A DNA stretch of 49,272 nt from an uncultured beta proteobacterium. Lineage in GTDB: Bacteria > Pseudomonadota > Gammaproteobacteria > Burkholderiales > Burkholderiaceae_B. The notes beneath the pieces are model-generated. The model was not told where the DNA came from and ran no database searches. It saw nothing but the letters and a program-made list of their open reading frames with translations. The position numbers and the translations under genes were made by a program. Below, piece by piece: positions 6,316 to 49,272 of this stretch (its first letter is position 1; every line of letters begins with the position of its first letter). The stretch spans positions 1-49,272 of the forward strand of contig CAITPF010000014.1 of assembly GCA_903894155.1 (NCBI GenBank), written 5' to 3'.

Positions 6316-7065
6316 ATGAACCGATCCATGAAGCATTTTCTCTGCGCAGCGCTGCTGGCGCTTGTCTCGGTCGCCGGCGTATCGCACGCGGCGCCCCCTG
6401 CGGCCGATGATCCGGCCGCCAGCGACCCGCGGGCGCAGGCCGTGCGCAAGCGGTTCGCCGAGCGCTTCGAGGCAACGCCGGTCACGGCTGTGCGCAGCAC
6501 GCCCTACGGTCTCTTCGAGGTGCAGATCGGCAGCGATATCGTCTATACCGACGAGAAGGTGAGCTTCGTGCTCGACGGGACGCTCATCGACGCGAAAACC
6601 CGCAGCGACGTGACCCGCGAGCGGCTCGAGGTCCTGTCCAAGTTGCCATTCGATCAACTGCCCTTCGAGCTGTCCTTCAAGCAGGTTCGCGGCGATGGGT
6701 CGCGCAAAATTGCGATTTTCGAGGATCCGAATTGCGGGTACTGCAAGCAGTTGCGCCAGGCGCTCAGGGGGATCGACAACCTCACGATTTATACCTTTCC
6801 TTTCCCCATCCTGACCGCTGATTCGACCATAAAAGTGCGCAATATCTGGTGTGCACCGGATCGCGGCGCGGCGTGGGATGCCTGGATGCTCGAGGGCAAG
6901 GTGCCGCCTGACGGCACGTGCGAAGTCCCGGTCGACCAGATGCTTGCGCTGGGTCATCGGCTGATGGTGCGCGGCACGCCAGGCATCTTTTTCGCCGATG
7001 GCAGCCGGGTCGGCGGGGCGATACCGGCGGAAGAAATCGAAAAACGCCTGAAACAATCGATGTGA
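6316..7065 (+). CDS. dsbC: Thiol:disulfide interchange protein DsbC (periplasmic isomerase)
   Basis: A 249-aa exported protein with a Sec signal ending near Ala25 (VSHA-AP). Residues 35-110 form the N-terminal dimerisation domain; the C-terminal thioredoxin fold carries the active site C140-G-Y-C143 in FEDPNCGYCKQL and the cis-Pro loop VRGTPGIFF. DsbC/DsbG proteins shuffle wrong disulfides in the periplasm and are kept reduced by DsbD. CGYC is the DsbC-type active site. It begins eight bases after the monooxygenase stop with AGGAG upstream, so it ends the apaG-mltA-monooxygenase-dsbC run. Confidence 0.93.
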   Translation: MNRSMKHFLCAALLALVSVAGVSHAAPPAADDPAASDPRAQAVRKRFAERFEATPVTAVRSTPYGLFEVQIGSDIVYTDEKVSFVLDGTLIDAKTRSDVTRERLEVLSKLPFDQLPFELSFKQVRGDGSRKIAIFEDPNCGYCKQLRQALRGIDNLTIYTFPFPILTADSTIKVRNIWCAPDRGAAWDAWMLEGKVPPDGTCEVPVDQMLALGHRLMVRGTPGIFFADGSRVGGAIPAEEIEKRLKQSM

Positions 7066-22067: not shown

Positions 22068-22202
22068 GAGCGATGGCACCAGGGGGAACACTGAGAGTCT
22101 ATACCAATGACGGATCGCAACTGTCGACGCGTGCCTCGCTCTGGACGACGGGGCTTGCCGTGTACCTGGTCACCTGGCCACCTTACGCTACCTGCAAGGA
22201 CA

Positions 22203-35891: not shown

Positions 35892-36118
35892 GGATCTCGC
35901 TCCTGAGGTGCGCGGCATCGTTTTAAAATAGACAACGGAATCAATTGGTTACAGAACGGGTGAGTTTATGGACAGCAAGGTATGACGTCAAGCGTGGCCT
36001 GACCAGGGTTGTAGCGAGCCCTACGGTTCAGAGCGCGGAGGGTGCCTTCGGTATCATCCGGATTTAAGCGCCGGGCGCGCGCTGCTTCACAACGCGAGTG
36101 ATCTATGGGAGCCACACG

Positions 36119-41637: not shown

Positions 41638-42528
41638 ATGCTCGACAACCTGGCCGCGAGGGCAGCGTACGCTGTTTTCAGAATGCTCGGCCATTTTCCG
41701 CTTGCCCTCCTGCAAAGCCTTGGCTTGTTGTTTGGTTGGGCGGGCTGGCTGGCGCCCGGCAGTTATAAGCGGCGCGCGCAGGAAAACTTTTCGATTGCCT
41801 TCCCCGGCCTGGGTCGCTCAATGCAGCGGCAGGCCATGGAACAACTGTTGCAGATGTTCTTCGAGCTTCCCTATCTGTGGGCACGTCAAAACGACGCACA
41901 GATGGATGCGCTCGTGCATTGCGACCAATGGCCCCTGTTCGAATCCCTGCTGGCCGAGGGGAAGGGGATGATCCTGATCACCCCCCACGTTGGCTGCTTC
42001 GAAGTGCTTGGGCCTTTGTTCAGCCGCAAGTACAAGTCCACCGTTATCTTCAAGGAGCCCAAGATGCGGTGGCTCAAGGAGTTGATTAATCGCGTCCGTG
42101 TTTCCTCGAACCTTTCGATGGTTCCAGCGACCCATGGCGGAGTCAAGGCGCTGATCAAGACGCTGCGGCGGGGCCATACGGTCGGGATGTTGCCTGATCA
42201 GGTGCCCAATGAAGGCGACGGGGTCTACGCGCCGTTTTTTGGTCGCCCTGCCTACACCATGACGCTCGTCCAGAAGCTTCAGCACTACAGTGGCGCCCCG
42301 GTTGTCACGGTAGGCATCGAGCGCCTGGGACTAGGGCGTGGCTACCGCTTTCACGCAACGCGCATGCCCGAGGCAATGTCCGCGGATCCGGTCATCGCCG
42401 CCACACAAATGAACCAGGCACTTGAGGACATGATTCGCAAGATGCCCCTCCAGTATCTATGGGGATACAACCGGTATCGGAAACCTCGTCCGGCACATCC
42501 CGCCGACAGGCCGGCTGCCGGTCATTGA
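41638..42528 (+). CDS. Lipid A biosynthesis acyltransferase (LpxL/HtrB family)
   Basis: A 296-aa inner-membrane enzyme of the LPLAT superfamily that adds a secondary acyl chain to lipid A. One helix lies at about 18-38. The catalytic motif is H-V-G-C-F-E in LITPHVGCFEVLGPLF, matching the H-x4-D/E rule; KEPKMRW, the substrate-binding region, and GMLPDQVPNEGDG, the conserved DQ motif, follow. Which chain it adds (LpxL or LpxM role) cannot be said. ATG 41638 is the family start. pdxH follows after 133 bases with its own promoter candidate. Confidence 0.88.
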   Translation: MLDNLAARAAYAVFRMLGHFPLALLQSLGLLFGWAGWLAPGSYKRRAQENFSIAFPGLGRSMQRQAMEQLLQMFFELPYLWARQNDAQMDALVHCDQWPLFESLLAEGKGMILITPHVGCFEVLGPLFSRKYKSTVIFKEPKMRWLKELINRVRVSSNLSMVPATHGGVKALIKTLRRGHTVGMLPDQVPNEGDGVYAPFFGRPAYTMTLVQKLQHYSGAPVVTVGIERLGLGRGYRFHATRMPEAMSADPVIAATQMNQALEDMIRKMPLQYLWGYNRYRKPRPAHPADRPAAGH

Positions 42529-42580
42529 CCAGGTGCATGGCAAACCAGTTCGCTCAGGGCAGGGGCGCCAGTGGCGCGCA

Positions 42581-47811: not shown

Positions 47812-48513
47812 CTATTGGCTTTCTGGCGGCCGCGTTTGTTTGCTTTGCGCCAGGTTGATGAAAAGCGAAACGACGACCGCCATGTAGAAGGCGCCAAAGA
47901 GCGCGGCAAACAGGCTTAACGTCGTGGCGGGGGCTGTAACCGGAGTGACGTCCGCGTATCCGATCGAAACAACCTGCGTGAAGGCGTAATAGGTGAAAAG
48001 AGCCGTGCGCGCATGCCAGCCGGGAAGTTGGCTCATGATCGCGGGATCAATGTTGTAGGCCGTGGGCACCAGCAGATAGGCGATGGCGTTCAAGCTCGCC
48101 CAGACGTTGCCTGCGATGAGGTAGCCACAGAGCGCGCCAAGAATGTTCTCGGTGCCTCTGCTGGGGTCTCGCAACAAATCGCGCAAGATCACGTAGACGG
48201 CAACAGCCTCGAAGATGGACCGCGCCGCCTGCTCGGCAATCGTCAATGCGTAGTCAAGGCGCGCTTCGGTCAGCAGTTGAAGCCAGAATATGATGAGCGC
48301 CACGCACAGCAATGCCCCCATCCGCACGCGATCGCGGGGCTGATCAAATACGACAGCCCAGATCGCGATAATCAATACGGTACCGAATGCGGCAGAAAAG
48401 AGTAACCAGCCACCTCTCGCGTTAAACGTTTCAACGACGAGCGAGACGAGCAGCAAGGTCAGCAGGACGGTATATTTCCTCGTCTTTAATATGGTTGTGT
48501 CAACGCGCGGCAC
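47812..48513 (-). CDS. Two-pore-loop-type K+ channel family protein
   Basis: A 233-aa membrane protein with four N-terminal helices (about 14-110), then a pore domain: helix 122-148, a pore loop FTYYAFTQVVSIGYADVTP with the filter-like SIGYADVTP at 183-191, and the last helix 195-220. It belongs to the Ion_trans_2 fold, but the filter has GYAD where K+ channels have GYGD. This could alter selectivity or conductance. No RCK/TrkA-N domain is present. It is alone, with MAPEG upstream on the same strand at 54 bases. Confidence 0.83.
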   Translation of the reverse strand: MPRVDTTILKTRKYTVLLTLLLVSLVVETFNARGGWLLFSAAFGTVLIIAIWAVVFDQPRDRVRMGALLCVALIIFWLQLLTEARLDYALTIAEQAARSIFEAVAVYVILRDLLRDPSRGTENILGALCGYLIAGNVWASLNAIAYLLVPTAYNIDPAIMSQLPGWHARTALFTYYAFTQVVSIGYADVTPVTAPATTLSLFAALFGAFYMAVVVSLFINLAQSKQTRPPESQ

Positions 48514-48566
48514 GCATCAGCCTCCTGAAAGAATCCATCAACCTTTGACGAAGAAATTATTCCAGT

Positions 48567-48968
48567 TCACAGGGCCGCGAACCTGGCCAGCGACCAGCCC
48601 AAGTTAAGAACAATCAAAGCCATGAGCGTCACGAAGGTAAATTTCATCCCCAGGATGCGTTTGCTAAAGTCAGGTGGTGGTACGTTGATGCCTTTGGCGT
48701 GAATCAGGCGACCGATAATGAGAGTGATCCCCGGCAACGCAACCAGCCACCATGGGGCGCCATTGAGCTCCAGACAAGCAATCAGGATAATGCCGAAGGG
48801 AACGTATTCAGCGAAATTGCCATGAGCGCGAATGGCGCGTTCAAGATCTTCGTGGCCACCGCTACCCAGGCCAACCTTATTCTTTTTCCGGAGACCGATC
48901 ACGGCAAAAGAGAGTCTGATAAATATTGCGGTTAGCACCGCGGCGATGATTGAAGTGACGAGCAACAT
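48567..48968 (-). CDS. MAPEG family membrane protein
   Basis: A 133-aa protein with four predicted helices at about 1-25, 53-71, 73-90 and 105-128. The MAPEG signature R-A-x-x-N-x-x-E reads here RAIRAHGNFAEYVPFGIIL. MAPEG members include microsomal glutathione transferases and eicosanoid enzymes; bacterial ones mostly lack proven function. ATG 48968 is the family start; the frame to 49010 reaches into the presumed end of an insertion element, whose boundary lies 36 bases before the ATG, so the element sits in this gene's promoter region. Confidence 0.88.
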   Translation of the reverse strand: MLLVTSIIAAVLTAIFIRLSFAVIGLRKKNKVGLGSGGHEDLERAIRAHGNFAEYVPFGIILIACLELNGAPWWLVALPGITLIIGRLIHAKGINVPPPDFSKRILGMKFTFVTLMALIVLNLGWSLARFAAL

Positions 48969-49003
48969 GGAAGACTCCCAAGAGGTTTTCCAAAATCTTA
49001 CCC

Positions 49004-49070
49004 TTGACATCCACTCCCACCTTGGCCTTCGGCCACCGCTTGCGCGGGAAGGAGGGAGATTCCTACGGCG
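49004..49070 (-). ncRNA. Candidate omega-RNA / right end of an IS200/IS605-type element
   Basis: On the minus strand, right after the tnpB stop, the RNA would fold as CCGC-TTGC-complement loop-GCGG (49047-49036) and TGGCC-3-GGCCA (49035-49023), with GGGAG (about 49014-49018 complement) able to pair with CTCCC (49054-49058 complement) in a long-range helix. It ends in TCAA (49007-49004), a tetranucleotide that IS608-type elements use at the right cleavage site. This layout, structured scaffold overlapping the 3' end of tnpB followed by a guide from flanking DNA, is that of TnpB omega-RNAs. Boundary and folding were judged by eye. Confidence 0.62.
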
Positions 49071-49271
49071 CTATGCAAGAGAAGCCTCTAGCATAGTCGC
49101 TTCGGTGGGTTCCTGCTTCGCAGAGGCTGGGTGCGTCGTCGTCTTGCGACTGCGGCCAGAGCCGTCCTCTCCACAGGCAAACAAGCGCTGCCCGCGCTCT
49201 AAAACATTGATCGCGCCAACCAGATCCGCATGGGCGGTATGTTCGCACGCGACACACAGGAATTGGGCTTG
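49071..49271 (-). CDS. tnpB: TnpB (IS200/IS605 OrfB) C-terminal part, truncated by window edge
   Basis: The last 66 codons of an RNA-guided nuclease-type transposon protein. It reads QAQFLCVACEHTAHADLVGA, then INVLERG, then a variable polar tail ending EATMLEASLA. F-x-C-x-x-C is the second half of the TnpB zinc ribbon, and the Asp of HADLVGAINVL is the third RuvC residue (D-x-N-A-x-N-I in relatives). It ends at TAG 49073-49071, and the omega-RNA-like right end follows at once. The rest lies beyond the window, so whether the nuclease is intact, and whether a tnpA exists, cannot be seen. Confidence 0.85.
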   Translation of the reverse strand, partial: QAQFLCVACEHTAHADLVGAINVLERGQRLFACGEDGSGRSRKTTTHPASAKQEPTEATMLEASLA

Positions 49272-49272
49272 C

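What the first reader, a model, noticed from the sequence alone, without database searches (positions are those of the whole stretch)
48982..49272. TnpB with an omega-RNA-like right end whose guide would target the MAPEG promoter region
The edge of the window holds the RuvC-III/zinc end of TnpB, an immediate structured RE with two hairpins plus a long-range GGGAG/CTCCC helix, and a TCAA end. The next bases on minus, read from 49003 down to about 48984 (GGGTAAGATTTTGG and onward), would be the guide, lying 15-35 bases before the MAPEG ATG. The tnpB transcript runs into the MAPEG gene in the same direction. This may be an ordinary transposon copy, or a TnpB kept for silencing or control of a host locus.
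Basis: partly seen in the sequence, partly recalled or inferred. Interest (0 to 1): 0.72.

Follow-up and report, generated by a model that had tools for sequence, protein, structure and literature searches.

The report
Ordinary TnpB transposon beside MAPEG
The window ends inside one of many copies of a small bacterial transposon whose RNA-guided nuclease takes its guide from the DNA next to each landing site, so a match to the start of the MAPEG gene is expected and does not suggest gene control.

Summary
49071-49271 (minus) is the C-terminal end of a TnpB, 49004-49108 a covarying omega-RNA scaffold, and the element ends at TCAA at 49004. The guide is simply the flank (49003 down), 16-35 bases before the MAPEG ATG at 48968.

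The reading as a MAPEG-directed regulator is not supported. The window is a whole contig cut at a repeat. The same right end occurs on 9 contigs of this genome, all stopping at TCAA, with 9 different flanks. Eleven long left ends follow TTGAT (10) or CTGAT (1); the seven that reach that far lead into tnpB after about 190 bp, with no tnpA. So this is a multicopy, tnpB-only (IS1341-type) IS200/IS605 element. RuvC acidic residues, each read in a different copy, are intact, so there is no sign of a nuclease-dead TldR.

The guide has no TTGAT-bearing target in the assembled genome: at its own locus it follows GTCAA. Its target would be the empty site, as in the published transposon-retention model.

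New details are modest: a forked 3' stem in the omega-RNA and, in passing, over 100 short IS-end-like hairpin repeats, roughly half of those examined lying exactly on stop codons.

The parts
49071..49272 (-). 3' end of tnpB (RuvC-III HADLVGAIN, last zinc-finger pair CVAC, C-terminal tail), cut by the contig end; stop codon at 49071-49073
   Evidence: Open frame of 66 aa; 75% identical to the end of a 413-aa TnpB in G101; relatives on C30/C33 pass Pfam PF07282
49004..49108 (-). Right end = omega-RNA (reRNA) scaffold, overlapping the tnpB 3' end; ends at TCAA (49004-49007)
   Evidence: Boundary shared by 9 contigs with 9 flanks; covariation on 32 relatives; fold
49068..49100 (-). Helix 1 of the scaffold (GCG-A-CTATGC / GCATAGCGC)
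   Evidence: 9 of 9 pairs have changes on both sides among 32 relatives, 90.3% of cells paired
49014..49058 (-). Terminal forked stem (CTCCC...GGGAG) enclosing two hairpins at 49036-49047 and 49023-49035
   Evidence: Helices 2, 3 and 4 (93.7, 96.1 and 85.3% of cells paired); 19 of 32 relatives have the fork, 13 a plain hairpin
48984..49003 (-). Predicted 20-nt guide = right flanking DNA of this insertion
   Evidence: Position rule from ISDra2 (PMC8612924, passages read; about 16 nt there); no TTGAT+guide site in own genome
48567..48968 (-). MAPEG-family gene downstream of the insertion (host gene, not part of the element)
   Evidence: Pfam PF01124 E 2.9e-21; in 8 of 8 relatives the protein match starts at residue 1 (80.8-88.9% identity, one of them a 63-residue and one a 30-residue stub)

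Best explanation
The window ends inside a copy of a multicopy, about 1.4-kb, tnpB-only (IS1341-type) IS200/IS605 insertion sequence that most likely landed 3' of a TTGAT motif, with 35 bases between its end and the MAPEG start codon. [quoted passage not shown] When the single-stranded element is excised, TnpB would recognise TTGAT joined to that flank (the empty site) and cut it, so that repair from the copy that still holds the element restores it. Shown here: the ends, the TAM-like motif at other copies, the lack of tnpA, the covarying scaffold, and RuvC acidic residues in the copies where they can be seen. Inferred from published ISDra2 and related work: cleavage, retention, and mobilisation in trans by a Y1 transposase. 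The left end of the window copy itself is not assembled.
For: Right end on 9 contigs with 9 flanks, all ending at TCAA, 97-100% identical over the 55-313 bases matched. Left ends in 11 places (116 bp or more), TTGAT in 10 and CTGAT in 1, then CCGATGCGCGGC...; 7 of the 11 run past the tnpB start, about 190 bp further, with no tnpA between. One Y1 transposase match in the genome, in another element on C375. C135 carries tnpB residues 2-260 with RuvC-I GIDVGI; C240 shows RuvC-II CIEDLQVRN; the window has RuvC-III HAD. Complete tnpB-only relatives: Comamonas antarctica plasmid (409-aa TnpB, OrfB_IS605 E 1.9e-31) and MAG Bin_27 L146/L147 (1,430 bp each). For L147 the flanks join in frame: the right flank is TctC profile positions 180-274 (E 4.4e-15) and the last 22 residues of the left flank resemble a tripartite tricarboxylate transporter binding protein just before that point (weak, E about 1). 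The unoccupied Polaromonas plasmid allele has TTGAT exactly where the Comamonas left end begins. Covariation. TTGAT as TAM and the guide from the right flank are published for ISDra2 (PMC8612924, passages).
Against: No full-length copy is assembled in this genome: TnpB residues about 261-288 are seen only on C240, an internally deleted copy, and 289-331 on no contig. Integrity is thus shown piecewise and not for the window copy itself. No empty MAPEG site was found in 31 genus relatives, and DNA similarity around MAPEG does not reach further than 22 bases before the ATG. Of three complete relatives examined only L147 is consistent with a clean insertion, and that on short evidence (other frames are open across its junction too). 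In the Comamonas plasmid 474 bp of target are missing beside the right end, and in L146 the left flank holds TctC positions 90-273 while the right flank starts at a start codon, so the front of the gene is missing. One of 11 left ends follows CTGAT rather than TTGAT.
Confidence: 0.9

Rival explanations
1. A TnpB-derived RNA-guided repressor (TldR-like) domesticated to control MAPEG.
For: Same direction as MAPEG and guide within its 5' region (sequence). TldRs exist (PMC13418256, passages read). In one of 8 relatives with a MAPEG match (G008, contig C109) a related tnpB lies about 3.2 kb from MAPEG on the opposite strand.
Against: RuvC-I D, RuvC-II E and RuvC-III D are kept in the copies where they can be seen; multicopy with a different guide at each site; the guide's locus lacks a TAM and no other TTGAT+guide site is assembled; I saw no right end of this type in the 220 bases before MAPEG in 8 relatives.
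Confidence: 0.03
2. A dead or truncated copy: the contig break marks a real deletion, so the locus holds only a solo right end.
For: Deletion relics exist in this genome (C210 solo right end; C240 internal deletion), and the window copy cannot be seen beyond 49272.
Against: The right-end contigs break at scattered points inside the repeat: the window after 269 bp of element, C30 and C33 after about 320 bp, the other six after 55-150 bp. This is typical of assembly collapse at a repeat; left-half contigs break likewise.
Confidence: 0.12
3. The insertion matters to the host in cis: it cut MAPEG off from its own promoter and the gene is now read from tnpB.
For: Only 35 bases lie between the element end and the ATG, and tnpB reads toward MAPEG. 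No sigma-70-like site was found on the minus strand in 48500-49272 (1 hit, on the plus strand).
Against: No expression data; a consensus scan is weak evidence; the native upstream DNA is unknown.
Confidence: 0.25

Closest known systems
ISDra2 TnpB / reRNA (Deinococcus radiodurans)
   Same: TTGAT at the left end, reRNA from the tnpB 3' end plus right end, guide from the right flank (PMC8612924, passages read)
   Different: ISDra2 has its own TnpA (same passages); here there is none, and the terminal stem is forked
IS1341-type elements (tnpB only)
   Same: One tnpB between left and right ends, about 1.4 kb (PMC9956272, passages read: 10 of 18 elements 1,252-1,393 bp, 8 longer, 1,512-2,382 bp)
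   Different: The 11 long left ends here exceed the one to four IS1341 copies per genome given in those passages, which cover other species
Comamonas antarctica plasmid element, NZ_CP054842.1
   Same: 84.4% DNA identity over 97% of the right end, same forked stem, left end after TTGAT
   Different: Different host and insertion site; the target there lacks 474 bp relative to the unoccupied allele
C375 element of the same genome
   Same: TnpB 60% identical to the G101 relative of the window's TnpB; similar scaffold
   Different: Has a Y1 transposase domain on the opposite strand and a plain right-end hairpin

Membership tests
IS200/IS605 family, IS1341 group | tnpB with OrfB_IS605 and Cas12f1-like_TNB domains | tested here: met
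   Comamonas relative E 1.9e-31 and 7.6e-21; C135 left half OrfB_IS605 E 1.2e-23; C33 right half TNB E 2.3e-8. Window fragment alone E 7.8e-4, below cut-off
IS200/IS605 family, IS1341 group | Conserved left and right ends with subterminal hairpins, fixed boundaries | tested here: met
   9 right ends and 11 long left ends, right ends all stopping at TCAA
IS200/IS605 family, IS1341 group | Insertion without target duplication | tested here: inconclusive
   Three complete relatives: L147 consistent with a clean junction; L146 and the Comamonas copy lack target DNA beside the right end
IS200/IS605 family, IS1341 group | No tnpA in the element | tested here: met
   About 190 bp from left end to tnpB in the seven left ends that reach it; one Y1_Tnp match in the genome, on C375
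TnpB / OMEGA nuclease | RuvC acidic residues | tested here: met
   D (C135), E (C240), D (window), each read from a different copy; not shown for one single copy
TnpB / OMEGA nuclease | omega-RNA scaffold at the 3' end, guide from the flank | tested here: met
   Scaffold covariation and end position; RNA itself not observed
TnpB / OMEGA nuclease | RNA-guided, TAM-dependent DNA cleavage | not testable with these tools
   Needs biochemistry
TldR (TnpB-like nuclease-dead repressor) | Inactivated RuvC and stable association with a non-transposon gene | tested here: not met
   RuvC residues kept where visible; each copy has a different flank

The most novel reading that the evidence does not exclude
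The ends of this tnpB element family, perhaps acted on by the single Y1 transposase on C375, have seeded a large population (more than 100) of about 50-nt single-hairpin mini-elements that begin like the left end (TTGAC/T) and end like the right end (GTCAA). Roughly half of those examined sit exactly on the stop codons of host genes. That would be a REP-like population derived from the ends of a TnpB-carrying transposon rather than from a dedicated RAYT, and possibly a 3'-end mRNA element.
Probability: 0.35. Interest if true: 0.55.

Novelty: new member of a known kind. Interest (0 to 1): 0.27.

Why it matters
It settles that a guide matching the 5' region of a neighbouring gene follows from how these elements make guides, and is no sign of gene control. 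It also adds a tnpB-only family with a well-supported forked omega-RNA stem and points to a population of short repeats in the same genome that could be studied as end-derived mini-elements.

Tried and rejected
Regulation of MAPEG: rejected for lack of a TAM-bearing target, multicopy spread and kept RuvC residues. Empty MAPEG site in relatives: not found; 8 of 31 genus relatives have a DNA match to the MAPEG region, and it ends at most 22 bases before the ATG. TTGAT+guide (19 nt, up to 3 mismatches) gave matches in 24 of 32 genomes, none listed with fewer than 2 mismatches; the reversed control pattern gave 3 matches in all, far fewer, an excess I did not explain beyond the same sites recurring in several relatives. 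Pairing left and right halves within the genome by continuity of reading frames: I found no pair by eye. Rfam: one sub-threshold match (E 0.29) on the other strand, taken as chance. Promoter and terminator scan: one of each against shuffle means of 0.5 and 1.0. Short repeats as conserved RNAs: no covariation in 14 sequences; weak and ambiguous in 34 (score reached by 2 of 500 shuffles, but the +3 slid control had more double changes, 8 against 6). Of the protein libraries only Pfam was used; no structure prediction or fold search was run, and no viral contigs were searched. For the covariation test, sequences were chosen by a regex for GTAGGAATC...GGANGTCAA, so those motifs are invariant by construction; 2 sequences without the 5' anchor (L047, L061) were dropped, as were those seen that lack the full GTAGGAATC motif; the structure was drawn after looking at these sequences, and many rows are close relatives of each other.

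Full report
What is in the window. The window is contig C14 of the assembly G000 in full (49,272 bases; 502 contigs, 5.15 Mb), so its right edge is an assembly break. On the minus strand 49271-49071 reads the end of a TnpB (66 aa): QAQFLCVACEHTAHADLVGAINVLERG..., with the RuvC-III acidic residue. MAPEG (Pfam E 2.9e-21) starts at 48968 and reads the same way; 35 bases lie between it and the element end.

The end is real. Searching the own genome with 48960-49272 gave 10 matches. Nine, on C14, C33, C30, C255, C224, C495, C262, C155 and C339, are 97-100% identical over 55 to 313 bases, and in all nine homology stops at GGATGTCAA with nine different flanks. The tenth, C210, is a solo right end of about 55 bp with a different upstream sequence.

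The left end. With the full TnpB of a relative (G101, 413 aa, 75% identical over the window's stretch) the own genome gave N-terminal pieces on other contigs. These begin TTGAT|CCGATGCGCGGCAAACCC... (one CTGAT) and reach the tnpB start after about 190 bp, with no tnpA. A search with this left end gave 11 long matches (116 bp or more), preceded by TTGAT in 10 and CTGAT in 1, plus many short ones; 7 of the 11 run past the tnpB start. The genome holds one Y1 transposase match, on C375, in another element. The element is thus tnpB-only. Visible RuvC residues are acidic: GIDVGI on C135, CIEDLQVRN on C240, HADLV in the window. TnpB residues about 289-331 are on no contig.

Complete relatives. A conjugative plasmid of Comamonas antarctica carries an 84%-identical right end and a complete element: TTGAT, left end, 409-aa TnpB, forked right end, GGATGTCAA. 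Two copies in MAG Bin_27 are 1,430 bp each. In L147 the joined flanks read ...YLKSGKLTALAL/MSDKRSALIADVPTMREAG...; the right part is TctC positions 180-274 and the 22 residues before the junction resemble a transporter protein of that family, weakly (the 48-residue left piece had no Pfam match). That fits a clean insertion without target duplication, although other frames are open there too. The other two are not clean. In L146 the left flank holds TctC positions 90-273 and the right flank starts at an ATG, so the front of the gene is missing. The unoccupied Polaromonas pPNAP01 allele shows TTGAT exactly at the Comamonas left boundary, but the Comamonas right flank begins 474 bp further on. 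In both, target DNA is lost beside the right end.

The RNA. The 105-nt scaffold folds alone into two main parts: a bulged helix, and a terminal stem enclosing two hairpins (z -2.87). A longer stretch folded differently. On 32 distinct right ends the drawn structure pairs 91.5% of 745 cells; slid controls pair 37-56%. Both-side changes number 99 against 31 in shuffles, 0 of 500 reaching it. RNAalifold finds the two main helices on the same alignment (19 pairs, 12 with double changes). The fork is present in 19 of 32; 13 have a plain hairpin. Caveats on selection are in Tried and rejected. Nety et al. (PMC10278001, abstract and sections 13-14 read) report a hairpin within 10 nt of the 3' end of the scaffold in almost all orthologues, which fits.

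Does it act on MAPEG? In ISDra2 the guide is the right flank, the TAM is the TTGAT at the left end, and the donor joint left after excision is the target (PMC8612924, passages read). A preprint reports TnpB acting as a gene drive against plasmids without the element (PMC11870625, abstract read). So at an occupied locus the guide is preceded by the element's own GTCAA and is not a TAM-bearing target. In 32 genomes of the genus, TTGAT+GGGTAAGATTTTGG with up to 3 mismatches occurs in the own genome only at the donor locus, with GTCAA in place of TTGAT; no relative has a listed match with fewer than 2 mismatches. In 8 relatives with MAPEG the DNA similarity ends at most 22 bases before the ATG. 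A guide against MAPEG is a by-product of where the element landed. An effect in cis on MAPEG transcription is possible and untested.

In passing. Many short left-end hits proved to be about 50-nt repeats of the form [T/C]TGACCNGGTGCGCGRCAAGCCCCGYCGTTCAGGGCGGGGAGGANGTCAA: a left-end-like start and a right-end-like finish around one hairpin. A covariance model (R1, 14 sequences) matched 125 places in this genome at E 0.01 or better (150 of 7,099 candidates scored, so a lower bound; about 15 are left ends of the long elements) and 0 to 28 per genome in 31 relatives. In the first set of 35 rows (34 places, as one was listed twice), 30 places have TGA at letters 2-4, and in 19 of these 30 that TGA ends a frame open for at least 60 codons, against 8 and 7 in the other two frames (recounted without the double). 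In 40 further listed copies, 36 have a stop there; 21 of 36 end a frame open for at least 60 codons, against 8 and 11, and 15 of 36 for at least 150 codons, against 0 and 2. Two TAA in the second set, and one TAA and one TAG in the first, suggest that the stop belongs to the host gene. REPs downstream of genes are known, and CGTC-tagged REPs are said to lack a dedicated transposase (PMC3733652: abstract, section 6 and passages read). Whether these repeats belong there, and whether they truly derive from this element, was not tested beyond the sequence likeness.

Verdict. A correct observation of an ordinary element, with an over-reading of the guide. New member of a known kind.

Noticed in passing
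G000, 125 model matches; examples L131-L145, L183-L242; window 22123-22173(-), 42525-42572(+), 35999-36046(+): About 50-nt single-hairpin repeats with a left-end-like start and right-end-like finish of the same IS family; 40 of 74 places examined have a stop at letters 2-4 that ends a host frame open for 60 codons or more (19 of 34 counting TGA only, 21 of 40). Abundant in this genome, 0-28 matches per genome in 31 relatives.
   Followed up: partly
L171:2834 and 4262 (Comamonas antarctica plasmid); L146:1430 and 2861: In two of three complete relatives target DNA is missing beside the right end: 474 bp of a DUF932 gene, and the front of a TctC gene. Unexplained; it may be recurrent.
   Followed up: partly
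L014:1500-1552 (G000:C210:5558-5609): A solo right end without tnpB, ending at GGATGTCAA, lying between a TctC-like gene and an RraA-like gene (names from recall); its terminal stem has a standard pair where the full copies have a T-T mismatch.
   Followed up: no
G000:C240:155-374 and 6511-6648: Contig C240 carries element left ends near both of its ends; one belongs to an internally deleted tnpB (start joined to the RuvC-II region).
   Followed up: no
window 48969-49010(-): The ATG inside the element's GGATGTCAA end is in frame with MAPEG and extends its ORF by 14 codons. Orthologue matches start at the inner ATG, so this is probably chance, but right ends of the form GGAGGATG can donate a start codon to the flank.
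   Followed up: no
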